Both the position numbers and the translations under genes were made by a program. The notes beneath the pieces were generated by a model that was given only the letters and a program-made list of their open reading frames with translations, had not been told where the DNA came from and did not search any database. Of a stretch of DNA of 38,094 nt, positions 24,764 through 36,799 are shown one piece after another. The stretch's first letter is position 1. Every line of letters starts with the position of its first letter. The stretch is from a virus, in IMG/VR virus record IMGVR_UViG_3300032516_000075, positions 1 through 38,094 of that record; one strand, 5' to 3'.

Positions 24764-25687
24764 CTAGGCGCCCTTGAGGTTGTACCCCTTCACGAACATC
24801 AGCTCCTCGGCGAGCTTCACGTCGAAGCGGACGGTCGCGACGACGATGACCACGCCTGCGGAGATGTCCTCGGCGATCTTGATCTTGATCTGCCGGTAGA
24901 ACCCGAGGAAGATGGCCCGCGGGTCACCCAGGACGATCTGGGTGTTGCTCGAGCCGTCCACCGGGAACTCGGTGACCTGGTTGATCGGGAAGTCCGACCA
25001 GGTCACGCGGCCCTGCTGCTGCAGCATGGCGTCGCCGAGACCGGTCATGCGATCCGACAGGGCGTCCTTGTAGTCGATCCGCGCCTGGCGGTTGGTGAAG
25101 TACTCGAGGGCCGGGTTCTCGGCGAACTCGTCCGGCATGGTGCGGTACATGTCCCGCAGGATGGTCTTGGACAGCTTGGTGCTGCCGGCGTCCACCGTGA
25201 AGGACGAGATCTGCTTCAGGACGCCGTTCAGCTTCGCGAGGACCGGGTCCGCCGAGTTGACGTCGCCACGGATGGCCACCCACTCCATGTCGCGGCCGAT
25301 GGCCTTGGAGAGCTCCTCGATGAGCGTGTCACGGAAGGTGCCGCGCTCGATCTGGTCCTCGAGCGACTCGTCGGTCATCCGCATCTCGGCCTTGAACAGC
25401 TGGGCGTCGAGGGTGACCATGGACAGCGAGGGCTTCGCCCAGGCCGAGGACGGCAGGGCCGTCCCTTCCTGCCCGGCGCGGAGCACGCGGTTGGCGAAGC
25501 GCATCTTGTCGCGCTCCTCCTTCATGGCCTTCATCGGCGTCACGGTGCAGCGCTGGAGCAGCACCGGCTGCTTGATGGCGAGCTGGATGAACTTGTCCGC
25601 CTGCGCCGGCTGAAGCAAGCCGCCAGCCGTGAAGTCGCTGACCGCGATCTCCGCCTTCCGCAGGAGAGTTCTGTTTTCCGATGGCAT
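24764..25687 (-). CDS. Major capsid protein (HK97-fold, XkdG-like)
   Basis: 307 residues with a strong GGAGG SD. HK97-type layout: an N-terminal arm with DFTAGGLLQPAQADKFIQLA, an E-loop region (RFANRVLRAGQEGTALPSS), a helical spine (LEDQIERGTFRDTLIEELSK, AIGRDMEWVAIRGD), a P-domain and a C-terminal IVLGDPRAIFLGFYRQIKIK, AEELMFVKGYNLKG segment. It lacks a long N-terminal delta domain, matching a separate scaffold gene upstream. It assembles the icosahedral shell around the scaffold. It follows the scaffold gene, as XkdG follows XkdF in PBSX. Main capsid identification is firm; the precise subfamily is not. Confidence 0.92.
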   Translation of the reverse strand: MPSENRTLLRKAEIAVSDFTAGGLLQPAQADKFIQLAIKQPVLLQRCTVTPMKAMKEERDKMRFANRVLRAGQEGTALPSSAWAKPSLSMVTLDAQLFKAEMRMTDESLEDQIERGTFRDTLIEELSKAIGRDMEWVAIRGDVNSADPVLAKLNGVLKQISSFTVDAGSTKLSKTILRDMYRTMPDEFAENPALEYFTNRQARIDYKDALSDRMTGLGDAMLQQQGRVTWSDFPINQVTEFPVDGSSNTQIVLGDPRAIFLGFYRQIKIKIAEDISAGVVIVVATVRFDVKLAEELMFVKGYNLKGA

Positions 25688-25750: not shown

Positions 25751-27472
25751 CTACTTGGACTCGCGCTTCGCGAGCTGCTCGCGATAAGCGGGATCGTTGT
25801 AGTTCCGGGGGAAGAGCAGGGGATCGGTGTTCCCCTCGCCCTCACCGCCACCCTCGTCACCCGTCGACGCCGGCGGAGTGACCTCGGACCTCGCCTTGGC
25901 GATCTGCGTCTGCAGCTCGGCCACCTGTGCCACGGCAGTGTCGAGTCGCTTGGCGAGCTCGTCGACGGTCGGGGCGATCGGAGCGTCGATCACGGGCGCG
26001 GCGACCACCGGGGGCGTCGTGATCGGGGGCTCGGTCACCGCGGCCGGTGGGGTGATGACCGGCTCGGTCACCGCGGCCGGTGGGTCGATCTCCCCATCAT
26101 CCTTCTTCGCTGGCTTCTTGCACGCCTTGGCGCGCTCGACGCCGCAGTTCTGGCAGAACTTGCCGAAGCCCATCGGCTTGCCGCACTCCGGGCACGTGGC
26201 CAGTCCGGCCTTCTCCGCCTCGACCCGGGCCGTCTCGACGTCCGCGGCGATCTTCTCGGTCTCGAGTCGCTTGGCGGTCTCGAACGTGGCGAACTCCTCC
26301 TCGACCACGGCCAGCCGCTGGTCGATGTCGAGGGCCAGGCTGAGGTCGCTCAGCTCGGGCGCCACGGCCTCCTCGGCTTTCTTCACGTCGGGGTACTTGT
26401 CGAGGAGACCCTTGAGGAGGGTGCTGAGAGTCTTGATCTCCCGCGCTGCCTTCGCCTGCTCGAAACCGGCCGACTTGGCCTTGGAGGCGAGGGACAACGC
26501 GCGCTCCGACACCTCTCGAAGAGTACTCGAGAAGGTGCCTGCCGCCTTTGCCGTCTGCATCGGGCATCGCTCCTTCGCCGCCTCGACGAGGTCGCGCAGA
26601 GCGCCGATCTCCGTCTTCACGGCATCTGATGGTGTCTCACTGGTGGCCATCTTGGCCAGAGAGGCAGCGCGATCTGCCACCTCTCGCAGCGTCTGCGTCA
26701 TCGCGGTTGCCTGCGCCTCGGCCTCCTCGGTCTCCTCGGAGATGTCGGGCAGGACGGGTGTGGTCTCGCCCTTGCTGATGGAGAACTTCTCGACCAGCGC
26801 TCCCAGGGTCGAAGCCACGGTCTCGACCTCCACCCCGAGCTCGCCGGTCACGGCCTTGGCCGTCGCGACCTTCTGGGAGGTGGCCAGAGCCTGCTCGGCC
26901 ACGGCGAGCAAGGACGACTCGAGCTCGGACTTGGCCGCGGGGTAGTCTGGCTTCTTGGGCTCCGGGTACTTCTCGACGAGCCCCTGGAGCATCGACACGA
27001 GACCGGGCAGCTCCTTGGGCAGGTCGATGTCGCCCGACTCCTCCATGGCCGCCTGGGCCAGGGAGAGGCACTTCTCGCCCACCTCACGCAGCACGGCTGT
27101 CACCGTGCCACCCGAGGCCTTCGAGAGCAACTCGTACAGGCGCTCGGCCTCGGTGATGGCCTCGACCAGCTGCTGCCGAGCCGCGTCCTGGTCGAGTCCC
27201 TTCTTCAGGTTGTCCACGGCGCCGCCGAGGGCCTCGAGAACCTGACCAGCCCGCTCCAGGTCCTGCTTGGACACCAGGGCGGGATTGTGCAGCTCATCGC
27301 CGACGACCTCGAGCTCTTGACCCAGAGCTGGATGCGGCATTGTTTCCTCCTTGATGATCAAGTACCGTCTCTTGTTAGCGGCCCTATCGACCAGAGCTAC
27401 AGCCGAGGGTTCAATGCCGCGAAGGCGCCGCTTCCCTTTTCGAGGGTCGATTTTATCGGTAGGGGTGGGCAT
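25751..27472 (-). CDS. Scaffold protein with four coiled repeats and a zinc ribbon
   Basis: 573 residues from the ATG at 27472. Residues 1-44 carry a conserved-looking RLRGIEPSAVALVDRAANKR, RRYLIIKEE segment typical of XkdF/scaffold regions. Residues 124-361 contain four repeats of about 47 residues (pattern L-R-E-V-x-E-x-A-x-S-L-A, then a variable helix, then L-x-G-L-V-x-K-Y-P). A zinc ribbon lies at C427, C430, C440, C443 (CPECGKPMG, FCQNCG). A proline/valine-rich linker and a C-terminal coiled coil follow. This suits an internal scaffold that co-assembles with capsid. A second start at 27340 (529 residues) has a much stronger SD (AAGGAGGAAACA), and a promoter lies across the first ATG, so a shorter form may also be made. 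Confidence 0.8.
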   Translation of the reverse strand: MPTPTDKIDPRKGKRRLRGIEPSAVALVDRAANKRRYLIIKEETMPHPALGQELEVVGDELHNPALVSKQDLERAGQVLEALGGAVDNLKKGLDQDAARQQLVEAITEAERLYELLSKASGGTVTAVLREVGEKCLSLAQAAMEESGDIDLPKELPGLVSMLQGLVEKYPEPKKPDYPAAKSELESSLLAVAEQALATSQKVATAKAVTGELGVEVETVASTLGALVEKFSISKGETTPVLPDISEETEEAEAQATAMTQTLREVADRAASLAKMATSETPSDAVKTEIGALRDLVEAAKERCPMQTAKAAGTFSSTLREVSERALSLASKAKSAGFEQAKAAREIKTLSTLLKGLLDKYPDVKKAEEAVAPELSDLSLALDIDQRLAVVEEEFATFETAKRLETEKIAADVETARVEAEKAGLATCPECGKPMGFGKFCQNCGVERAKACKKPAKKDDGEIDPPAAVTEPVITPPAAVTEPPITTPPVVAAPVIDAPIAPTVDELAKRLDTAVAQVAELQTQIAKARSEVTPPASTGDEGGGEGEGNTDPLLFPRNYNDPAYREQLAKRESK

Positions 27473-27601: not shown

Positions 27602-30600
27602 CTACCGAATCTCTTCAACAAGAGCTGTGCCCTCAATGCTCCATCCGGTGAGCCGACCAGCCTTGATGTCTTCCCACAGCTTCGGGTCGACGATGTGCGC
27701 TCCGAGCAGCCAGGTGCCCTTCTTGACCGGCTGGCCCTCCAGCTCAAAAGCTACGGGTGCGAGGTAGTTTTCGAGCACCTCGTACTGGGCGTTTGCGAGG
27801 AGGGACTCGTGCATGTAGCCCAAGATGTGCTGCTTGCGCATGAAGTGGTAGGCCGCCTGCCGGACAGTCTCGGGGTCGTAGATGTCACCCTGGGAGTCGA
27901 AGGTCTCGGGCTCGAGGACTACGCCGAAGACGTACTGCTCCTCGTCCGCGCTCTGCTTGAGGATGTCGAAGCGCCGCCCGGCGTTCTTGGCGAGCCCGGC
28001 ACGCGCCTCGGCCTCCGACTTCTTGAGCTCACCGGGGTCGAGCAGCTCGAGGACCTCCTTTATATTGGAGGGCGGCTGGCTGACCCTGTCGATCACCGTG
28101 GGAGTGAACCCACGCAGTCGCTTCTTCTCTGGGTTCGAGGAGTCGAAGAGCAGCTCCGTGACCTCGATCCGCACGACGTCTCCCACTCGCGCGTTGAGCT
28201 TGGTGTTGAAGGTGTTGTGCAACAGTAGCCCACCCTCTGCGTCGACGAAGTTCTCCGATCCCGGAACCGTGAAGTCATACACGAAGCCAGAGTAGGGAAT
28301 TGGTGTCATCTCGGCAGAACGTCGCTGGGCCTGCACTCCAAGTCTCTCGCGAACGCGCAGCGCGGTTCCTTGGTGACTGGGGCGAACCGAAATACCGGCC
28401 CGATCTGACATCCACAGTAGCCCGGCCATGCCCTGCACTGAGAGCGAAGATACTCCACCGAAGTAGCGCCTAGATCCCTCTCGGCCCCCGTCTCCGTCGT
28501 CCAAAGCACCCTGTATGAATGCATCGCGGAAGACTTCCGCCAGATTATAGACGAAGCTGGGTACACGCTTCTCGTGAGCTGAGCAGCCCGACAGTGATTT
28601 GACCAAGTGGTGCAAAGGCTGCGAGTTCTTCACGAGGTGCCAAGTGCGATCTTGTTTTCGCCAAGTGGCCTCACCCAGACCCAGAGCCAGCAGAGCCCGC
28701 TGTGTCCGCTCCTGAATCTCTCGCGAGTTCTTGACCACGATCACGTGGCTGGCGAGAGCGCCCGAGCCATATTGGTATTGACCGCTGCAGCCATCGGCCA
28801 GGTAGCGACCCCACCAATAGCACACTTGGCGCAGCGCATCCCCCTCGAGAATCTCCGGCAGTCGGCAGCCGCGAACCTCGAAGGCTCCTGGAACCAGATC
28901 TCGCAGATTGACTTGCGAGGCGCCCTCACAGGCGTTGGGCCACGGCAGCGCTCCGGCCCAGAAAACACGCCGTCCTGCAAAGGCGTCGGCGCGGCAGACG
29001 CACATGTCCTCGTCGATCAACGAGTGTTCACCGGTGACAACGGTAGAGCCCACTTCTTGATCCACGCGCAGCAGATCGCCGGAGAATGGGTGCCGACTGA
29101 CTTCAGACACCTTGGTCCATTGCAGACAGCCATTCGCCACGGATAGAGTCTCGAAGTTGGCTGCACGCAGCTCACACCCCGACGGTGATACCTCCACGGG
29201 TGTCGAACATGACTCCCAGGACTCTTCGAACGACACGAGCTCGATCAGCCCATTGCGCCGAATCCACGTCCTGCGCCACGGTGCAATGCTCTTACCGGCC
29301 TTGACGTAGGTCTTGCCTTCGATCTCTACGGTCTCGGTGAAGGTCTTGGCCTCTTCCGCAGACACGGGACCTACCGCGTACATGAAGTTGTGCACACCAG
29401 GAGAGTCCTTGACCGGATGCGCGTCCCAGATGATGCCACGAATCTCGCGGATCATCTTGAGCTTGGCCATGGAGTCCGTTTCGCGCAGGGTGACCGTGGA
29501 CTCCACACTCTTGAGCATGGCGCCCTCGGAGCCGGGGATGGCTCGCGCCCACTCGATGGCCGCGAGGAGCTCCGGCTTCGAGTGCACGACTCGTTGCGGT
29601 GTGAGCACGAGACGGCTGAGCTTGTGCCCCTTGAGCAATACCTGCAGCGCGTCATGTCGCTCGCGAGCCGGTTGCGCCATGACGTTGCCCTTGGTTGGGC
29701 TGAAGAGGATGTCGAAGACGTGCACGCGCACGTTGACATCGTCAGCAGCCGAGGTCGAGCGGAAGTCTGCCAGCTCGCGTCGCGGCACGGGATCTCCCTC
29801 GCTGGTAACGGCCATGAACTCGCCGTCGAGAATGTAGGGACCCGGCAGCTTGTCGAGCTCCTCTTTCAGACCAGGCAAGTGATCCAGGAAGTTCGACACG
29901 GGCGTCTTGCGATCCCAGATGTCCTCCGAGATCATGAGTTGTCGACCCTTGTCGTCCTTCTGTACCGAGGCGCGGAAGCCGTTCCACTTCGGCTCTACGA
30001 TGAGCCCCGTCTTGAGCAGCTCCTCGGTGGCGAAGTCCTTGAAGAGCCGATCCATGTCGCTCGACCGGAACTCGTTCGAAGCCCGCGGTGCCACCTTCAT
30101 CGGCTTGTAGAAGGCCAGCGGGCGCAGGCGTTCGCGATCGTGTGTCTTGTCGTCGTCTGGGGAGATGTCCTTGGGATCCCAGACCTGGACGTCGGCCAGC
30201 TGCTTGCCATCCGCCAGGGGCATGGTTTTGATGCGCTCCTTCTTCTCGAGCTCGACCTCTTCCGCGCGAGCGATGGGTTCTCCGACTTGCTTGCTCTGCT
30301 CGTAGATCCAGATGTCGCCCTCGCCCTTCTCCGCCCGCAGGACCAGCTCGCCCTCGAGGGACTTGGGCAGCCCCTTGCCCTTGAATCGAAACTTCTTGAA
30401 GGCTCGGTCGTCCTGCAAGAAATCGATCTCTCCACGGTGCAGAATGCTCATCGTGGAAGGCGTACCCTTCGTGTCGTTGAGCACCACACCGGCAACCTCC
30501 TCGCCCGGGGGCACCTCGCCCTCATAGCTCATGAGCTTGCCAGCCTCGGTCGAGCGGATGACCTTGTGGATGGCCGTGATGGGTCCACCGCCCGTGGGGT

Positions 30601-33600
30601 CGTCCATGAGCTGGAAGTCCTCCAGCTCGTTCGGCGCGCGCTGGACGAGCAAGTGGAAGAGCTGCCGGCTCGGCGCAGCGCGGACCACGACCTGCCCCTT
30701 CCACCTCTGCCACGACAAGGTGAAGGGCGCCTTGCTCAGTCCCTTCTCAGCCTCGACGACTTCATCTTTCTCTTGACTAACCTCAGCCGGTCCTGTAAGC
30801 TGATCGGCGGGCGGTGAGGGTTGATGCTTATATGCTATGCTATCTGAACCCTTGTCCGTGTCGCAGAGGTAGTACTTGGTGACGACCCGCCGGAACTCGT
30901 AGTCCACGATCTTGATGTTGGACTCGTTGAAGAAGCCCTCCGCAACCAGCGCGTCCCGAATCCCAAGGCGCTCCTTCTCATCCTTGGCGTGCCAGTACTG
31001 AAACTGCTTGGGCACGACTGCCTTGAGCCCAGGTGGTAGGAAGGCCCAGCCCTGCGGCGGGATGCTGCCCGTGTCCACGGCTCGCTTCTTGAGCATGGAC
31101 GGGAGCAGGCTCTTGGTGAACATGGCCGTGATGAAGGTGGCACCCTGGGGCATCTGTCGACCGGCCTCGACCTCTGGGTCACCGGGCTTGCCGGCGTCGG
31201 ACACCAGCAGCCTGAAGTTGAGCAGCCCGTAGAACTTCGGGTCGCGCTCGCAGAAGTACTCCTGGAAGTAGGGTTCGGTCTTGCCCCGGGAGACCGTGGG
31301 GTGGGCCAGGGCGATCATGTAACCCTTCTTGAACCGGGTGGCTCCGACGGTGCCGGGGGCGAACTCTTCGGCGTTGATGCGCAGCCACTCCTCGGGCTCT
31401 GGCGCCTTGGGTGCGGCGTAGACGCGCGCCGGGGCGACGAGGGGCTTGTTCCAGCTCGAGCCGTCCCGGCTGAAGTCCTTCACGAAGGCCTTGGCCTCGG
31501 CCAGGCTGTTGAACTCGGGGACGGTCTTGGGGATCTGAATGGAGAGCGTGTAGCCGATGAGGTAGTCGCCCTGCTTCACACGGAAGTCGGCGTGGATGGA
31601 CGCCCCACGGATGTGCGCCTGGACGACTCCGGGGAACGTGTCCTCCTTGGCGGGCAGCTTCAGGTTTGGATCGGCCTTGGCGAGCAGGACCTCGGTCGGG
31701 TCGATGAGGAGGCCCGCGTCGCGCATCTCGATGATGGCCTGCGAGTCCTCGCGCCGGCGGACGACCAGGTCGTAGAGCGGGATGTGCGCCGAGAACGGAC
31801 CAGCTGCGGAGACGTCGCCTTCGGCTGCCCCGTCGCCATGGAACTGCAGGCGCTCGGCAAGCTCGGGGGGAAGCATGCGGGCCAGCCGGAACTTGGCGAC
31901 GTGGAAGGTGACCGGGTCGAGTGGTCCCTTGATGAGCACGTCGAGGTCGTTCTTGGTCGCCCCGTTGTTCACCACGCCTCCGCAGAGGTGGATGAAGGGC
32001 GCCCTGAGCAGGAACTCGTCGTGGAACTTGGGCAGGATGTCCTCGAGGGCGATCTCCTTGCCGAGCTCGGCTCCACTGCCACGGCAGGGGGCGTACTGCT
32101 CCGAAGGCCCGGCCTTGGTCGTCGGCTCGCAGGCTGCCTCGCAGGCCAGGGCCAGGCCACGACGGGACATCTCGTTCGCGATGAAGCGACGAGCGTTGGT
32201 CGCATCCTCGAGAGAGACGCCACCTCCGATGCTCGTCTTGCCCTCGGTGAACTCGGTCCTGATGAGCCGTTCCACCTCGGCGAGCAAGTTCTTGAGCTCG
32301 TCATTCGGGAGCTCCTGGAGCTTGTCGGGCGTGATGCCTCGCCAGGTCATCGAGGGGCCTTCGCCCGCGACCTGCCTGATGGCTTGGTGCGGCACGTCCT
32401 CACTCGTGATGGGACCGCAGGCGCCCTTGGCCAGAGCGTCGGGCAGCGTGATGGCACCGCCATAGCGACGGGAGGGTACAGGGCTCTTGAGTCGCAGGGG
32501 TGGCTCGTAGGCTGCCACGAGCTGCATGGGCATGTAGAAGATCGGCGACTCGGTCGAGAACTCCTCCTTGGAGAACCGGTCGATGCCCTCGCGGATGGCT
32601 TCTGGCACCTTGGACAGGTCGTCGTACTTGACCGGCTTGTCGAGCGTGATGACGCCCCAGACGTACTGGCCATCGGCCTTGGTGGCCTCGAGCTCGTTGA
32701 TGAGGAACTGGCGCTCTCCGATCCTGCCCTGTCGCTCGAGGCGAGAAAGTACACCTGTCGAGTGCTCGGTCTTGAGCCGTCTCACGTTGAAAGCCGGGTC
32801 CGGCATCTTGAGCGTGGACAGGCGCCCGCGGGGCTTCTCGTACTTCTCCAGGTAGAGGTCGACTGCAGCGAGCTCGGGCTCGGCCGGCGACAGGGCGTCG
32901 CCCTCGACGAACTCGGCATCCAGGCTGGCAAAGCTGCGTAGAGGCTCGATGGCGTCGTCAGCAATGCCTGCGATGCGCGTCTTCTTGGGCAAGAAGTCGG
33001 TCACCTCTTCGAGCTGGCAGACCAGGCGCTCGGCCTGATCGAAGAGGTTGCCGGGCGACATGGAGGGGACGGAGGACTCGGTTGGGCGCTGCTTGCACAC
33101 CACTCCGAACTCCTCGATGAGGCTCTTGATGATCCAGGGCATCCTGGGTAGGAGCTCGGTGATGGGCTGCTCGACAGGCATCAGCTTGGGTGCCCGCTGG
33201 GCGAAGAGATCCACCAGGGGCAAGAGGCCTTCGGCGATGACACGCACCCCGTTGATGGACTTGAGCTGGCCCTCGGTGAAGGCTGCCACCTCTTCGTCCT
33301 TGAGAGGACGCTTGAACCGCGGCTCGGTGGCGGCAGAGGCCTCCGGAGGAGTCCAGGGCTTCGGGTTCTCGAAGCTGTGCATCTCGACGACCTGGTAGGC
33401 GTAGAGCTTGCGCGCCAGAGGCCACATGCTCTTGCGCTCGTCCTCGCTGATCCTGTGCTCCTTGGCTCGACGACGGAACTCAGCCGTGGAGATGGGCTTG
33501 TGCTTGGACAGGACGACCACGCCGTAGATGTACTTGGAGTCGGCCAGGTAGAGCTCCTGCCCGGCCGCCTCGAGCAGACGAGCCTTGACGACCAACGTCT

Positions 33601-34522
33601 TGCGCCCCTTGACCACCGCCTGGGCGTGATGCGATGCCAGCACGATGGCGCGCTTGGGCGCCTTCACCGGCTCCGTCTTGGTGACAGCCTCGATGGACCG
33701 AGCCACGCTGCGTGCCTTCTCAGCCAGTTCAGAAAGCGTGTCGGTGATGCTCATCCCTTTCGTCCTTCCTTGACCAAGTTCCACACGTCCCTGCCGCAGA
33801 TGAAAGACCGCCCCGTCGCGCGCGAGATAGATGATCACGCCAGGCGCCGCCTCGTGCAGCATCTCGCGGGCGCGGCGCTCTCCGGCCTGGTAGATCCAGT
33901 CCCCGAAGTGGCTGAAGATGGCCTGCTTCACGCCATGCTTGCCCAGCCAACCCAGTTGCGTGGTCACCGCCGTGTGCCCGACCAGCTCTCCACGAATGGT
34001 TCTGACCATGCCCCCGTGGAAGTAAGAGGCATCTCCGATGTAGAGCTCGAGGCTCTTGAAGAACTGCTTGCCCAGCATGACTGAGATGACGTCCGACACC
34101 CAGCCGATGGTGCCCTCGGGAGTCTCGATCTTGATGGCTACCGATGGCGCCTTGCTCGAGTGCCGCGTGTGAAACGCGGTCAGGGTGATGCCGTCGGCCA
34201 CGGTCATCGGCTTGGCCTCGAGCAGGATGCGCCGGTCTTCGAGACCCTCGTAGCCCTGCTTGAGCAGTCCATCGGTGACCCGCGACATGTAGACCGGCAC
34301 ACCGACGGTCTCGTCCTTGAGACCTTCCACGTGGTCGGGATGCGCGTGCGAGATGACGATGGCCGTCGGCTTCACGTCCTTGTACTGACCGGCGTGGTTC
34401 TTGCCGAAGTCGAAGAGCAGCCGCGTCTTGCCGCTCTCCAGCAACCAGGCCGTGTGGCCATGATGAAATCGGTTGCTGAACTCGTTCTCGCCCTTCGTCC
34501 CCAGGAATGTGATGCGAACCAT
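27602..34522 (-). CDS. Giant polyprotein: MBL, ASCH-like, NTase-like, LigD-PE-like, DNA ligase (with intein), XkdF protease
   Basis: 2306 residues in one uninterrupted frame. Domains in order: MBL hydrolase (1-245; H59, H61, D63, H64 in SHAHPDH); ASCH-like (about 290-392) and a weaker second copy (about 590-690); nucleotidyltransferase-like (about 835-925; GG at 848-849, D859, D861, possible D918); LigD 3'-phosphoesterase-like (about 960-1110; H970, H977, D979); an unassigned beta-rich region (1260-1410); ATP-dependent DNA ligase (about 1500-1744; K1512 in EPKWNGFR, DGE at 1566-1568, EGAMLK at 1666-1671, K1687/K1689); an intein (1745-2103) in the ligase OB-fold; XkdF-type prohead protease (about 2190-2306; candidate H2238, S2295). 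XkdF normally lies alone between portal and scaffold, so the N-terminal enzymes are an addition. It may be a polyvalent protein packaged in the head and cleaved by its own protease (inference). Confidence 0.85.
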   Translation of the reverse strand: MVRITFLGTKGENEFSNRFHHGHTAWLLESGKTRLLFDFGKNHAGQYKDVKPTAIVISHAHPDHVEGLKDETVGVPVYMSRVTDGLLKQGYEGLEDRRILLEAKPMTVADGITLTAFHTRHSSKAPSVAIKIETPEGTIGWVSDVISVMLGKQFFKSLELYIGDASYFHGGMVRTIRGELVGHTAVTTQLGWLGKHGVKQAIFSHFGDWIYQAGERRAREMLHEAAPGVIIYLARDGAVFHLRQGRVELGQGRTKGMSITDTLSELAEKARSVARSIEAVTKTEPVKAPKRAIVLASHHAQAVVKGRKTLVVKARLLEAAGQELYLADSKYIYGVVVLSKHKPISTAEFRRRAKEHRISEDERKSMWPLARKLYAYQVVEMHSFENPKPWTPPEASAATEPRFKRPLKDEEVAAFTEGQLKSINGVRVIAEGLLPLVDLFAQRAPKLMPVEQPITELLPRMPWIIKSLIEEFGVVCKQRPTESSVPSMSPGNLFDQAERLVCQLEEVTDFLPKKTRIAGIADDAIEPLRSFASLDAEFVEGDALSPAEPELAAVDLYLEKYEKPRGRLSTLKMPDPAFNVRRLKTEHSTGVLSRLERQGRIGERQFLINELEATKADGQYVWGVITLDKPVKYDDLSKVPEAIREGIDRFSKEEFSTESPIFYMPMQLVAAYEPPLRLKSPVPSRRYGGAITLPDALAKGACGPITSEDVPHQAIRQVAGEGPSMTWRGITPDKLQELPNDELKNLLAEVERLIRTEFTEGKTSIGGGVSLEDATNARRFIANEMSRRGLALACEAACEPTTKAGPSEQYAPCRGSGAELGKEIALEDILPKFHDEFLLRAPFIHLCGGVVNNGATKNDLDVLIKGPLDPVTFHVAKFRLARMLPPELAERLQFHGDGAAEGDVSAAGPFSAHIPLYDLVVRRREDSQAIIEMRDAGLLIDPTEVLLAKADPNLKLPAKEDTFPGVVQAHIRGASIHADFRVKQGDYLIGYTLSIQIPKTVPEFNSLAEAKAFVKDFSRDGSSWNKPLVAPARVYAAPKAPEPEEWLRINAEEFAPGTVGATRFKKGYMIALAHPTVSRGKTEPYFQEYFCERDPKFYGLLNFRLLVSDAGKPGDPEVEAGRQMPQGATFITAMFTKSLLPSMLKKRAVDTGSIPPQGWAFLPPGLKAVVPKQFQYWHAKDEKERLGIRDALVAEGFFNESNIKIVDYEFRRVVTKYYLCDTDKGSDSIAYKHQPSPPADQLTGPAEVSQEKDEVVEAEKGLSKAPFTLSWQRWKGQVVVRAAPSRQLFHLLVQRAPNELEDFQLMDDPTGGGPITAIHKVIRSTEAGKLMSYEGEVPPGEEVAGVVLNDTKGTPSTMSILHRGEIDFLQDDRAFKKFRFKGKGLPKSLEGELVLRAEKGEGDIWIYEQSKQVGEPIARAEEVELEKKERIKTMPLADGKQLADVQVWDPKDISPDDDKTHDRERLRPLAFYKPMKVAPRASNEFRSSDMDRLFKDFATEELLKTGLIVEPKWNGFRASVQKDDKGRQLMISEDIWDRKTPVSNFLDHLPGLKEELDKLPGPYILDGEFMAVTSEGDPVPRRELADFRSTSAADDVNVRVHVFDILFSPTKGNVMAQPARERHDALQVLLKGHKLSRLVLTPQRVVHSKPELLAAIEWARAIPGSEGAMLKSVESTVTLRETDSMAKLKMIREIRGIIWDAHPVKDSPGVHNFMYAVGPVSAEEAKTFTETVEIEGKTYVKAGKSIAPWRRTWIRRNGLIELVSFEESWESCSTPVEVSPSGCELRAANFETLSVANGCLQWTKVSEVSRHPFSGDLLRVDQEVGSTVVTGEHSLIDEDMCVCRADAFAGRRVFWAGALPWPNACEGASQVNLRDLVPGAFEVRGCRLPEILEGDALRQVCYWWGRYLADGCSGQYQYGSGALASHVIVVKNSREIQERTQRALLALGLGEATWRKQDRTWHLVKNSQPLHHLVKSLSGCSAHEKRVPSFVYNLAEVFRDAFIQGALDDGDGGREGSRRYFGGVSSLSVQGMAGLLWMSDRAGISVRPSHQGTALRVRERLGVQAQRRSAEMTPIPYSGFVYDFTVPGSENFVDAEGGLLLHNTFNTKLNARVGDVVRIEVTELLFDSSNPEKKRLRGFTPTVIDRVSQPPSNIKEVLELLDPGELKKSEAEARAGLAKNAGRRFDILKQSADEEQYVFGVVLEPETFDSQGDIYDPETVRQAAYHFMRKQHILGYMHESLLANAQYEVLENYLAPVAFELEGQPVKKGTWLLGAHIVDPKLWEDIKAGRLTGWSIEGTALVEEIR
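27605..27955 (-). other. XkdF-type prohead protease domain (C-terminus of the polyprotein)
   Basis: Residues about 2190-2306 match the XkdF family of putative phage serine proteases: EEQYVFGVVLEPETFDSQGD at the start, a helix ETVRQAAYHFMRKQ, ILGYMHESL (candidate catalytic H2238), ENYLAPVAFELEGQPVKKGT, then a GAHIVDPKLWEDIK segment and TGWSIEGTAL (candidate catalytic S2295). This family cleaves scaffold and capsid precursors during prohead maturation. Here it is C-terminal to the intein, so the C-extein alone would still hold a complete protease. Confidence 0.75.
28214..29290 (-). mobile_element. Intein with LAGLIDADG homing endonuclease, inserted in the DNA ligase domain
   Basis: 359 residues in frame, residues 1745-2103 of the polyprotein. 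It starts with Ser (SIAPWRRTW, resembling Ser-1 inteins of archaeal B-family polymerases) and ends HN before a Thr (+1 nucleophile): GLLLHN, then TFNTK. Splicing block B is VGSTVVTGEHS (T1830, H1833). Block F/G is GFVYDFTVPGSENFVD then LLLHN. A DOD endonuclease lies between: GRYLADG (D1910) and FIQGALDDG (D2008/D2009). Removing it joins VKAGK to TFNTKLNARVGD, the uninterrupted ligase OB-fold. Both splicing and homing domains look intact, so it is probably active (inference). Codons look less GC-biased than in the flanking gene. Confidence 0.88.
29291..30025 (-). other. ATP-dependent DNA ligase domain, N-extein part
   Basis: Residues about 1500-1744 contain the nucleotidyltransferase motifs of ATP-dependent DNA ligases: motif I EPKWNGFR (adenylated K1512), motif III ILDGEF, a VHVFDIL segment, motif IV EGAMLK and motif V AKLKMIRE. 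After splicing, the chain continues into the OB-fold (TFNTKLNARVGDVVRIEVTE and a KRLRGFTPTVIDRV segment resembling motif VI). The enzyme would seal nicks in DNA using ATP. All motifs visible here appear intact. Confidence 0.8.
33788..34522 (-). other. Metallo-beta-lactamase hydrolase domain (N-terminus of the polyprotein)
   Basis: Residues 1-245. The metal-binding HxHxDH motif (H59, H61, D63, H64) lies in IVISHAHPDHVEGL, followed by FHTRHS, a WVSDV aspartate (D144) and VGHTAV (H183), as in MBL-superfamily hydrolases. This superfamily includes nucleases (SNM1, RNase J/Z types), so a DNA- or RNA-processing role is plausible next to ligase and phosphoesterase domains. The domain ends near residue 245, before a possible internal start (M257). 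Confidence 0.7.
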
Positions 34523-34534
34523 CGGTGTGCCTCG

Positions 34535-34924
34535 TCAGGTGGGCGACCAGAGTGTCTTGTCGCCCTTTTCTGGATCGAAGGTGATCCCGTCGAGCTCGCA
34601 GCGTAGCGCATGAGCCATGAGATCGACCGTGCGCTCGAGTGAGTAGCCGAGGTCCCCGCGGGCGTGGCGAACCCAGGCCTCACAGATGGTGAAGCGCCGC
34701 TTGATCTCGTTGTTCGTCGGCTTGTGCTCCTTGAAGGGCTCGCGCTTGGCGTCCTCGGCGAAGCTCCGCCAGATGACGGCCTCCACGGCCACCATGAAGA
34801 CCTTGAGCTCCTCCTCGCTACGGTACATCGTGGCGAAGGGCTTGCGATCGGCACTGGCAATGCCGTAGGCCAGCTCCGCCGGGGTCAGGACCAGCCGGCC
34901 CTCGGGCTTCTTCTCGTCGCTCAT
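34535..34924 (-). CDS. Small acidic protein between portal and polyprotein, unknown
   Basis: 129 residues from the ATG at 34924, which shares the ATGA overlap with the portal stop and has AGGAGAG upstream. Upstream codons of the same frame lie inside the portal gene, so this start is preferred. The protein is helical, with LTPAELAYGIASADRKPFAT, EELKVFMVAVEAVIWRSFAE and FTICEAWVRHARGDLGYSLE. No family is recognised. Translational coupling to the portal and the neighbouring polyprotein suggests a head-assembly role. It ends 12 bases before the polyprotein start. Confidence 0.6.
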   Translation of the reverse strand: MSDEKKPEGRLVLTPAELAYGIASADRKPFATMYRSEEELKVFMVAVEAVIWRSFAEDAKREPFKEHKPTNNEIKRRFTICEAWVRHARGDLGYSLERTVDLMAHALRCELDGITFDPEKGDKTLWSPT

Positions 34925-36732
34925 GTGCTCTCCTGTACCTGTGTGGTGTCCCCCTCGCCAATGGGTGGAAGGGGTTGTCCGGCCGACCGCGGCATGCGCG
35001 GAACCGAGGCTCCTGCGCCGTTTCCGGCGGGCTGGACGACGGTCTCCTCGGGAGGCTTCGCACGCGGCGCGATCTCCAGTGCCGTGAGATCGCCGGTGCG
35101 AAGCTGGGCCAGGATGAGAGGCAGAGGACGATTCGACCACTCCTCACTGACCTCGATGAAGGCGCGGTTGAAGATGTCGGCCGCGAGCTGTCGCGCCTCG
35201 CTGGGCAGTAGAACGCCAGCCTTGACCATGTTGACGACCATCTCGGTCATCGCCTCCGGATCGCGCACGATGGGCGAGTTCGACCGGAAGAGCCAGAAGG
35301 TGATGTTGAGCTCCGGCATGATGTGCCGATCCATGAACTCGTCGAAGATCTGACGCTCCGGCTCGAAGACCTGTTCCTCGGCGAACTTCAGGGCGGCGAA
35401 GGCTGTGGCCCTGTTGATCTGAGAGTCGTCACCGCGAAGGATGCGTGGCAGCCGGAAGGACTTGGCGATCTTGGCCTCGTTCTGCTTGTCGTACTCCTGG
35501 AAGAGTGCGTCCTGCAGCTGCACGTCGCGCAGCGGTACGAACTGAATCTTGGGGACCTGCCGTGGCCCGGAGTCTCCCGAGGACGACTTCTGACCCTCGG
35601 CCTCGAGGACGAGGATGCGATGCACACCCTTCTTGCCCTTGAGGTGTTCGTCGATGTACTCCTCGATCTTCTGCGCCACACCCTTGCCGAAGCGACCGCC
35701 AGAGCAGAGCAGCGCCAGGGGCGGCACGACGTTGTTGCTGAAGTAGTTGTAGTTCACCTCGTCGAGCTCTCGCGAGCCGAAGACCGAGGGCAGGTTGGCG
35801 ATCCAGCGAGGGATGCCATAGTCAGAGGCCGGAGAGAAGATCGTGAAGTGGATGATCTCCGTAGCCGGCAGCGCACCCTTCTCCTTGGCCTGGAGCTCTT
35901 GCTCCGTCGCGTAGTAGGTGCCCGAGGCACGCGACATGATGCGCGGATCACCGTACTCCTTGAAGTAGATCGGACGCGACTTCTTGCGCAGCATCATGAA
36001 CTTCTTGAAGCGCCGGCGCCGCTTCATCTCAGCCCACGTGATGTCGGTGACCTTGACGCGTTCGGTGACCTCGACGTCGTCTTCCCCCTCGGGGAGCAAG
36101 CGCATGCGCTGCGGCTTGACGTAGTAGAGGTTGGCGATCTCGCGCAACTTGTTTCGCGTGAGCTCCCAGTAGGCGTTGCCGCAGACTTCCAGGTCCTGCC
36201 GCGACCGTCGGCGCAGCTCGACGAAGGAGAACTGCGGGCAGACGTGGGAGAAGAAGGCCTTGAGTCGAGCGTACTCGAGACGCGCGACGCGCCGCAGACG
36301 CTCCTTGCGCTCCTTGACCTCCTCGGGCGTCGGATCGACGACCTTGTCTGGCGTGAGCTTGCCATCCTGTGAGGCGAGCACGCGCTCGTAGAAGATCGAG
36401 TCGCGGATGCGCGTGTCGGCCTCGATGTCGGTCGACAGATCGATTCCAGGAACGAAGTGGTGGCCGAACGAGTCGATGTTGGTCACGTAGGCCTCGACGC
36501 AGGGGCGAAGCCAGGCGGACTGCTCGTAGAGTCCGTAGAGCTTGTCGGCGTCGTAGGCGGGGATCTTGGCGCCGCCCGGGAGCCGCTGCTCGTCGCTGGT
36601 CACGAGCTCAACCGTGCGTGTGATGTCGACCGCTCCCCCGGATGAGAACGAGGCCTTCACGAGTGGCGCCCGGGTACTGGATGCGGATTTCTGAACTGGT
36701 TTCGCTGACTTCCGATTTTTGCTAGTCGCCAC
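34921..36732 (-). CDS. Portal protein (XkdE/PBSX-type)
   Basis: 603 residues from a GTG at 36732, chosen because GGGAGAA lies 8 bases upstream. An ATG at 36774 falls inside the -10 element of the promoter just upstream and would not be on that transcript. Portal-type pattern: AYDADKLYGLYEQSAWLRPC, VEAYVTNIDSFGHHFVPG, DLEVCGNAYWELTRNKLREI, FTIFSPASDYGIPRW, NYNYFSNNVVPPLALLCSGG and a C-terminal LIVDPRNREQE-like end region with AAFAALKFAEEQVFEPERQI. The dodecameric portal is the DNA entry channel and the head-tail vertex. It is the first gene of the minus-strand operon and overlaps the next gene by 4 bases. Confidence 0.9.
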   Translation of the reverse strand: MATSKNRKSAKPVQKSASSTRAPLVKASFSSGGAVDITRTVELVTSDEQRLPGGAKIPAYDADKLYGLYEQSAWLRPCVEAYVTNIDSFGHHFVPGIDLSTDIEADTRIRDSIFYERVLASQDGKLTPDKVVDPTPEEVKERKERLRRVARLEYARLKAFFSHVCPQFSFVELRRRSRQDLEVCGNAYWELTRNKLREIANLYYVKPQRMRLLPEGEDDVEVTERVKVTDITWAEMKRRRRFKKFMMLRKKSRPIYFKEYGDPRIMSRASGTYYATEQELQAKEKGALPATEIIHFTIFSPASDYGIPRWIANLPSVFGSRELDEVNYNYFSNNVVPPLALLCSGGRFGKGVAQKIEEYIDEHLKGKKGVHRILVLEAEGQKSSSGDSGPRQVPKIQFVPLRDVQLQDALFQEYDKQNEAKIAKSFRLPRILRGDDSQINRATAFAALKFAEEQVFEPERQIFDEFMDRHIMPELNITFWLFRSNSPIVRDPEAMTEMVVNMVKAGVLLPSEARQLAADIFNRAFIEVSEEWSNRPLPLILAQLRTGDLTALEIAPRAKPPEETVVQPAGNGAGASVPRMPRSAGQPLPPIGEGDTTQVQEST

Positions 36733-36769
36733 TTTGCATTTCTCCCGCGACCTGATACAAGTCCGGGGT

Positions 36770-36799
36770 ATCATAGGTGCCTTCAGGGGTGCAAGTCAA
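36770..36799 (-). promoter_or_regulatory. Near-consensus promoter for the structural operon
   Basis: On the minus strand TTGACT (36799-36794, 5 of 6 to consensus) is followed after 18 bases by TATGAT (36775-36770, 5 of 6). The predicted start is near 36763, just upstream of the GTG and SD of the portal gene. This is the best promoter in the window and drives the long leftward structural operon. It is recognisable as a bacterial housekeeping-type promoter rather than a phage-specific one. Confidence 0.6.

What the first reader, a model, noticed from the sequence alone, without database searches (positions are those of the whole stretch)
31193..31621. LigD phosphoesterase-like and nucleotidyltransferase-like domains precede the ligase
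Segment QAHIRGASIHADFR (H970, H977, D979) fits the LigD 3'-phosphoesterase pattern (H-x5-6-H-x-D), and NDLDVLI (D859, D861) fits a nucleotidyltransferase pattern. Known: bacterial LigD joins phosphoesterase, polymerase and ligase domains for non-homologous end joining. Here phosphoesterase, NTase and ligase sit in one phage head-region protein, suggesting a compact end-joining set (inference). Histidine spacing is one residue longer than in typical LigD.
Basis: partly seen in the sequence, partly recalled or inferred. Interest (0 to 1): 0.7.

Follow-up and report, generated by a model that had tools for sequence, protein, structure and literature searches.

The report
Viral head-region LigD-like multienzyme protein
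A giant protein encoded among the capsid-building genes of an uncultured tailed virus joins relatives of the DNA-end-cleaning part of a bacterial repair enzyme to a DNA ligase and other enzymes, and the same set recurs in dozens of uncultured viruses, which suggests (untested) that such viruses carry their own DNA-end repair kit.

Summary
ORF 27602-34522(-), 2306 aa, lies between portal and capsid genes. It holds an MBL-fold hydrolase, an ASCH domain, a Pol-beta/MNT-type nucleotidyltransferase (NTase), two LigD-3'-phosphoesterase(PE)-like domains (PE1 with the reported motif, PE2 degenerate), an ATP-dependent DNA ligase interrupted by an intein, and an XkdF head protease. The window's PE region has no Pfam or NCBIfam hit of its own. 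The profile of it and its relatives, however, hits only LigD-PE structures in the PDB; LigD_N and TIGR02777 each match 17 of 30 relatives; and an AlphaFold model matches LigD-PE structures at Z 10.7-14.6 (PE2 half; next row 3.9). PE1 keeps LigD's metal ligands and Arg52/Gln40 equivalents with a one-residue-longer spacing, but replaces His84 and Tyr88: a divergent subfamily. NTase, ligase, PE1 and PE2 co-occur in 41 of 48 loci (46 IMG/VR contigs, ANMV-1, window), in at least three domain orders; a portal gene was found upstream in 21 of 48. Ku: 0 of 45 records. Best reading: a head-associated, possibly virion-delivered, DNA-end processing and sealing machine. Activity, packaging and delivery are inferred. 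My literature searches showed no description.

The parts
27602..34522 (-). 2306-aa multidomain head-region protein (whole ORF)
33797..34513 (-). metallo-beta-lactamase-fold hydrolase domain, HxHxDH motif SHAHPDHVEG
   Evidence: Pfam PF12706 over cut-off; motif in 11 of 12 loci with the domain; PDB profile hits are MBL-fold proteins
33362..33658 (-). ASCH (PUA-like) domain
   Evidence: profile A10: PDB TTHA0113 E 8e-6; Pfam ASCH in 4 of 18 members at E up to 0.1; one of the 18 rows was the window's next domain
32426..32737 (-). second conserved domain of unknown identity (working name PUA2)
   Evidence: own profile only
31760..32053 (-). Pol-beta/MNT-type nucleotidyltransferase domain, GGVVNNGATKNDLDVLI (D859, D861)
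31193..31663 (-). PE1: LigD-3'-phosphoesterase-like domain with Q968, H970, H977, D979, R981, K1039, W1046
30941..31138 (-). conserved stretch between PE1 and PE2 (working name 'mid')
   Evidence: own profile, 47 loci
30302..30727 (-). PE2: second LigD-PE-fold domain, metal ligands lost in the window
29429..30016 (-). ATP-dependent DNA ligase adenylation domain, motif I EPKWNGFRA
   Evidence: PF01068 E 3.2e-15 over cut-off
29291..29419 (-). ligase C-terminal (OB-like, own label) region, first part
   Evidence: own profile and comparison with intein-free L005
28214..29290 (-). intein (residues 1745-2103) inside the ligase C-terminal region, ends HN|T
   Evidence: TIGR01443 intein C-terminus over cut-off; absent from L005 (boundaries by eye)
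28031..28213 (-). ligase C-terminal (OB-like, own label) region, second part
27608..27961 (-). XkdF head-maturation protease domain
   Evidence: PF14550 E 5.5e-25; phrog_3017
34921..36774 (-). portal protein, directly upstream (context)
   Evidence: PF04860, phrog_12
24764..25687 (-). major capsid protein, downstream (context)
   Evidence: PF05065, phrog_1623

Best explanation
The protein is a head-associated multienzyme for processing and sealing DNA ends. Shown by sequence or predicted structure: it combines an MBL-fold hydrolase, ASCH, a Pol-beta-type NTase, two LigD-PE-like domains (PE1 with the metal triad, PE2 degenerate), an ATP-dependent DNA ligase and an XkdF head-maturation protease, encoded between portal and capsid genes. 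Inferred: it is co-assembled into the prohead, cut from (or by) its own protease domain, enters the cell with the linear genome or acts on DNA in the head, trims or conditions the 3' ends (PE1, MBL), possibly adds a nucleotide (NTase), and seals nicks or joins ends (ligase). That would circularise or repair the viral genome without Ku.
For: PE identity. The PE-region profile gives 5 PDB hits, all LigD-PE (3p43 3.3e-7, 3p4h 5.4e-7, the rest 0.023-0.25). PE1 alone: best 4.8e-4, 5 of 5 hits PE. PE2 profile: best 2.4e-7, 4 of 6 hits PE. PE3 of relatives: best 1e-9, 5 of 13 hits PE; in both, PE ranks first and the non-PE hits have E above 0.2. LigD_N and TIGR02777 each match 17 of 30 members at E up to 0.1, best 2.5e-8 and 1.6e-11. 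Foldseek: the first 7 of 614 matches are all LigD-PE, prob 1.00; VIA Z 10.7-14.6 over 115-123 residues, next row 3.9. Constraint: NTase G[GSRNT]..DxD in 42 of 43 by regex, L027 also fits by eye; ligase motif I in 40 of 42, the other two cut by an intein (L036) or contig end (L039). A set: NTase+ligase+PE1+PE2 in 41 of 48 loci, 17 in one ORF, at least three orders, fused or split; domain distances correlate (26 loci, 10 pairs, rho 0.36-0.60, 0 of 2000 permutations each). Head context: portal upstream in 15 of 48 loci by the window's portal profile and, by libraries, in ANMV-1, L017, L020, L021, L028, L035, L037, with different portal families: 21 of 48 in all. XkdF fused or nearby. Precedents: head-packaged multidomain enzymes (PMC5512222, PMC9503650 passages); end-joining circularisation by phage Corndog, with Ku (PMC4351075 passages).
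Against: No evidence here that the protein is in virions or is delivered. His84 and Tyr88 equivalents are replaced in PE1 (E1042, W1046 in the window), and alanine/point mutants of both are inactive in P. aeruginosa LigD (PMC8656161). The window also has Q where at least 90% of aligned members have H in PYFHEYF. PE2 lacks metal ligands in the window. PF13298's curated cut-off is reached in 0 of 45 records. Ku in 0 of 45 (many records are fragments). L011 and L019 keep PE without a detectable ligase although the module is not cut by a contig end. Portal was not recognised in 27 of 48 loci; upstream neighbours tested in L025, L031 and L044 gave none. The distance correlation has no capsid-gene control. 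NTase substrate unknown.
Confidence: 0.5

Rival explanations
1. Assembly-time role: the enzymes act inside the producing cell on replicating or packaging DNA near the portal (nick or break repair before or during packaging) and are never delivered to the next host.
For: Gene position between portal and capsid and protease fusion fit assembly as well as delivery. 2 of 45 records (G042, G043) carry another ligase gene elsewhere, so there the head-linked one may be specialised.
Against: Does not by itself explain why a late structural operon needs an NTase and an MBL hydrolase.
Confidence: 0.22
2. Counter-defence polyvalent protein: NTase, MBL, ASCH and PE-like domains act on host proteins, RNA or nucleotide signals, and the ligase repairs DNA cut by host nucleases.
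For: Nearest NTase folds are MNT antitoxins. The MBL profile also matches Apyc1 (1.7e-5), among many other MBL enzymes. ASCH domain. Polyvalent proteins carry Pol-beta NTases (PMC5512222 passages).
Against: Ligase and PE, the most constant parts, are DNA-end enzymes in known systems. Nearest-fold evidence for the NTase is moderate and for the MBL unspecific.
Confidence: 0.15
3. The PE-like domains are catalytically dead and serve as DNA-binding or structural beta-barrels that position the ligase.
For: His84/Tyr88 equivalents replaced in PE1; PE2 has lost the metal triad in the window.
Against: Metal triad plus Arg in PE1 of 43 of 48 loci. Invariant W and near-invariant K next to or at the replaced positions. 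PE3 of relatives keeps H, H, D, R, K and W in 12 of 12 aligned. Inteins of three relatives interrupt conserved motifs of PE1.
Confidence: 0.12

Closest known systems
LigD 3'-phosphoesterase domain (P. aeruginosa LigD PE; archaeal stand-alone PE 3p43, 3p4h, 5dmp)
   Same: Fold and profile homology; Gln40, His42, His48, Asp50, Arg52 equivalents; linked to an ATP-dependent DNA ligase
   Different: One residue longer between the first two His; His84 to E/Q/K, Tyr88 to Trp, conserved Lys; tandem copies (2-3); no polymerase domain found, no Ku found; joined to NTase, MBL and head protease; virus head operon
ANMV-1 virus AJP62006 'ATP-dependent DNA ligase' (KP703175)
   Same: NTase, ligase, PE1, mid, PE2 in one protein directly after the portal gene
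   Different: Order NTase-ligase-PE1-PE2; no MBL, ASCH or XkdF detected in it; annotated only as a ligase
Phage polyvalent proteins (PMC5512222)
   Same: Large multidomain proteins thought to be packaged and injected, including Pol-beta NTases
   Different: A term search of the main text found no LigD, XkdF or end joining; its 3 uses of 'ligase' concern RNA ligases in a 2H passage
Mycobacteriophage Corndog Ku-assisted circularisation
   Same: End joining thought to close a phage genome (PMC4351075 passages)
   Different: Phage Ku, with host LigD (host LigD recalled); here the virus carries ligase and PE-like domains, Ku not found

Membership tests
LigD 3'-phosphoesterase superfamily | sequence-profile similarity to LigD PE | tested here: met
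   but the window member alone has no library hit, and PF13298's curated cut-off is reached in 0 of 45 records (23 of 45 match at E up to 10)
LigD 3'-phosphoesterase superfamily | PE beta-barrel fold | tested here: met
   model pLDDT 84.8; Foldseek first 7 rows all PE; VIA Z 14.6, 2.5 A, 120 residues for the PE2 half; the PE1 half was not folded or searched alone
LigD 3'-phosphoesterase superfamily | metal ligands His42, His48, Asp50 | tested here: met
   PE1 H970, H977, D979; 43 of 48 loci; not kept in the window's PE2
LigD 3'-phosphoesterase superfamily | sulfate-binding Arg52, His84, Tyr88 | tested here: not met
   Arg52 kept as R981; His84 and Tyr88 aligned to E1042 and W1046 (alignments; LigD residues from PMC8656161)
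LigD 3'-phosphoesterase superfamily | 3'-phosphatase/ribonucleotide resection activity | not testable with these tools
   needs assay
Bacterial LigD (whole enzyme) | AEP-type polymerase domain | tested here: not met
   no such family among the 6 Pfam hits of the 2306-aa protein
Bacterial/archaeal NHEJ system | Ku partner | tested here: inconclusive
   0 of 45 records, but many are fragments, and the window record itself was not in that call except through its identical twin G001 (19,643 bases)
ATP-dependent DNA ligase | adenylation domain with motif I K-x-[DN]-G | tested here: met
   PF01068 over cut-off; motif in 40 of 42
Pol-beta superfamily NTase (MNT-like) | G[GS]-xn-D-x-D motif | tested here: met
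   window GGVVNNGATKNDLD; G[GSRNT]-xn-D-x-D in 42 of 43 by regex
Pol-beta superfamily NTase (MNT-like) | MNT fold | tested here: inconclusive
   top rows MNT/HI0073, Z 6.6, 3.2 A, 77 residues, under the Z 8 guide; Foldseek best E 0.026
Phage polyvalent proteins | packaged and injected with DNA | not testable with these tools
   only gene position and protease fusion support it

The most novel reading that the evidence does not exclude
A broad group of uncultured tailed viruses, some linked to archaea, packages a self-contained, Ku-free DNA end-joining machine in the capsid. A divergent His84-less LigD-PE subfamily, NTase, ligase and MBL hydrolase are made as a polyprotein or operon, matured by a fused or neighbouring head protease, and delivered to close or repair the incoming genome.
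Probability: 0.35. Interest if true: 0.85.

Novelty: new variant of a known kind. Interest (0 to 1): 0.7.

Why it matters
LigD PE is described as a cellular end-joining part (PMC8656161 passages). Here it forms a diversified viral subfamily with altered catalytic residues, in tandem copies, tied to head genes. If delivered in virions it would be a Ku-independent viral end-joining system and would make testable how such viruses close or repair their genomes on entry. It would also explain a protein whose one named relative is annotated only as 'ATP-dependent DNA ligase'.

Tried and rejected
Motif alone as proof: rejected, 12.9% of shuffles contain it. Direct library hits for the window's PE and NTase regions: none; among the 16 NTase members only 1 matched NTP_transf_2 (0.017) and 1 the Pol-beta palm (0.03). 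Single-sequence PDB search of the region: 0 hits. Single-sequence scans of viral contigs: only the same virus or nothing; the two-sequence profile A1 was needed. Ku: searched, not found. Cultured relatives by tblastn against 50,697 phage records: the window protein hit 317 records, 40 listed, of which only ANMV-1 covered the NTase/PE part (277 rows not seen); ANMV-1 as query hit itself and 3 Rhizobium phages over its ligase; pieces of L046, L014 and L015 hit only ANMV-1; L017 hit 23 records, 10 listed, nine of those only over its ligase part. Cellular genomes: one scan, 2 archaeal MAG contigs. BFVD fold search: one prob-1.00 match, unnamed 827-aa A0A516LT18, E 2.6e-3, not followed up. The distance-correlation test has no portal or capsid control; 20 named loci (redundant, truncated or intein-interrupted) and two without ligase were dropped, leaving 26. 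Habitats of the IMG/VR contigs were not looked up.

Literature: ten counted searches; nothing in their listings pointed to a LigD-PE/NTase/ligase head protein. Papers were seen only as passages, the rest as listings. The ANMV-1 description paper was not seen.

Full report
What was checked. The finding lies in ORF 27602-34522 on the minus strand, 2306 aa. The window is a virus record of 38,094 bases. Around the ORF are a portal gene directly upstream (34921-36774), an unassigned gene (25751-27472; no Pfam or PHROG hit), a capsid gene (24764-25687), and sheath, tape-measure and baseplate-J genes, so this is the structural cluster of a contractile-tailed virus. The reported motifs are present at the stated residues. 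The motif H-x5/6-H-x-D alone is not significant (12.9% of 20,000 shuffles).

Domain map. Library hits on the whole protein include MBL fold, ATP-dependent DNA ligase, XkdF protease and intein C-terminus. No library recognises the PE or NTase regions of the window itself. ANMV-1, a virus record with an uncultured archaeon as host, gave the first relative: its 866-aa 'ATP-dependent DNA ligase' aligns over NTase, ligase and PE regions. A two-sequence profile of the PE region found 46 IMG/VR contigs, one of which (L004) is 100% identical to the window over the query; several others are near-duplicates. A profile of 30 sequences found 41 loci, all on contigs already listed.

PE identity. In the alignment of 30 members the second His, Asp and Arg of H-x6-H-x-D-x-R are invariant, and the first His and the Gln two before it are at least 90% conserved. 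In the 25 that include ANMV-1 the two His, Asp and Arg are invariant or at least 90%, the Gln is not. The PE-region and PE1 profiles searched against PDB sequences returned five hits each, all LigD-PE. PE2 and PE3 profiles also put LigD-PE first, followed by weaker unrelated hits. The three domain profiles match each other (hhalign E 6e-8, 1e-9, 4.5e-19). Individually, 17 of 30 members match Pfam LigD_N and 17 of 30 TIGR02777 at E up to 0.1. In whole records PF13298 matched at E up to 10 in 23 of 45, none above the curated cut-off. The AlphaFold model of window residues 950-1425 (pLDDT 84.8) has LigD-PE structures in the first seven Foldseek rows, and by VIA Z 14.6 (3p43, 120 residues, 2.5 A) down to 10.7, next row 3.9. 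Those aligned ranges cover model residues 311-464, which is PE2. PE1 was not tested alone by structure.

Active site. From the LigD review (PMC8656161, passages), His42, His48 and Asp50 hold Mn; Arg52, His84 and Tyr88 hold the sulfate. The HMMER alignments put LigD's 'EDHPLxY' stretch on the family's 'xRQPxxW'. Thus His84 becomes Q, E or K (E1042 in the window), Tyr88 becomes an invariant Trp (W1046), and a nearby Lys (K1039) is near-invariant. PE3 of relatives keeps His, His, Asp, Arg, Lys and Trp in all 12 aligned. So this is a divergent subfamily. Inteins in three relatives interrupt PE1's conserved motifs: L041 inside the His motif, L048 after GWS, L045 before QKPYFHEYF. Inteins often sit at active sites (recalled), which fits functional importance.

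NTase. G[GSRNT]-xn-D-x-D is found in 42 of 43 loci with the domain by regex; L027 reads GDMD and fits by eye. The profile's two PDB hits are a nucleotidyltransferase and an aminoglycoside adenylyltransferase at weak E-values 0.024 and 0.4. The model (pLDDT 77) is nearest to MNT antitoxins and HI0073 (Z 6.6). I take it as an NTase with unknown substrate.

Architecture and context. With iterated local profiles, NTase is in 43, ligase in 42, PE1 in 48, PE2 in 48, MBL in 12, ASCH (PUA1) in 20 and XkdF in 36 of 48 loci. All of NTase, ligase, PE1 and PE2 are in 41 of 48, in one ORF in 17. The seven incomplete loci are L011 and L019 (module not cut by a contig end) and L026, L038, L039, L043, L049 (module at or near an end of the stretch held). 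Orders seen: NTase-PE1-PE2-ligase-XkdF (window clade), NTase-ligase-PE1-PE2(-PE3) (ANMV-1 and others), ligase-NTase-PE1-PE2 (L015 group). With Pfam models, ligase is in 40 of 45 records, XkdF in 16 (12 over the cut-off), Ku in 0. Portal proteins lie upstream in 15 of 48 loci by the window's portal profile and in seven loci by libraries (ANMV-1, L017, L020, L021, L028, L035, L037), with different portal families; L017 is in both sets, so 21 of 48. Upstream neighbours tested in L025, L031 and L044 gave no portal assignment. Two archaeal MAG contigs (Archaeoglobales, Thermoprotei) carry relatives. The window's own host is unknown.

Mechanism. The set of parts (3'-end processing, nucleotidyl transfer, ligation, MBL hydrolase) and the recurrent tie to head genes and a head protease make a head-associated DNA-end repair or joining function the best single reading. 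Packaging, delivery and each activity are inferred. Rivals are an assembly-time role, counter-defence, and a non-catalytic PE scaffold.

Literature. Passages of the polyvalent-protein, jumbo-phage, ANME-1-virome and NAD papers and the listings of ten counted full-text searches showed no such protein. The searched library holds only open-licence papers, so this is a limited absence.

Noticed in passing
window 28214-29290 (-): Intein of 359 residues (1745-2103) in the ligase C-terminal region, absent from the relative L005. It starts with Ser, and its N-terminal motif looks atypical to me.
   Followed up: partly
L041, L045, L048, L036: Inteins interrupt conserved motifs of PE1 (L041, L045, L048), and one in L036 lies just before the detected ligase domain, where motif I is not found in one piece.
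   Followed up: partly
L028:4473-10313: A 1947-aa protein with two ligase domains and an MBL-like domain, without the HxHxDH motif, between PE1 and PE2.
   Followed up: no
L015:1885-3738: Split ligase fused to a D12-class N6-adenine DNA methyltransferase next to the PE-bearing gene.
   Followed up: no
window 25751-27472 (-): 573-aa protein between the module and the capsid gene, found in 14 loci by its own profile, without a Pfam or PHROG match.
   Followed up: partly
L002:5868-9368: ANMV-1 1166-aa cysteine-rich protein next to the module; only a weak EB-module match.
   Followed up: no
records G042 and G043 (loci L047, L048): A second, separate ATP-dependent ligase gene (547- and 582-aa frames) besides the head-linked one.
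   Followed up: no
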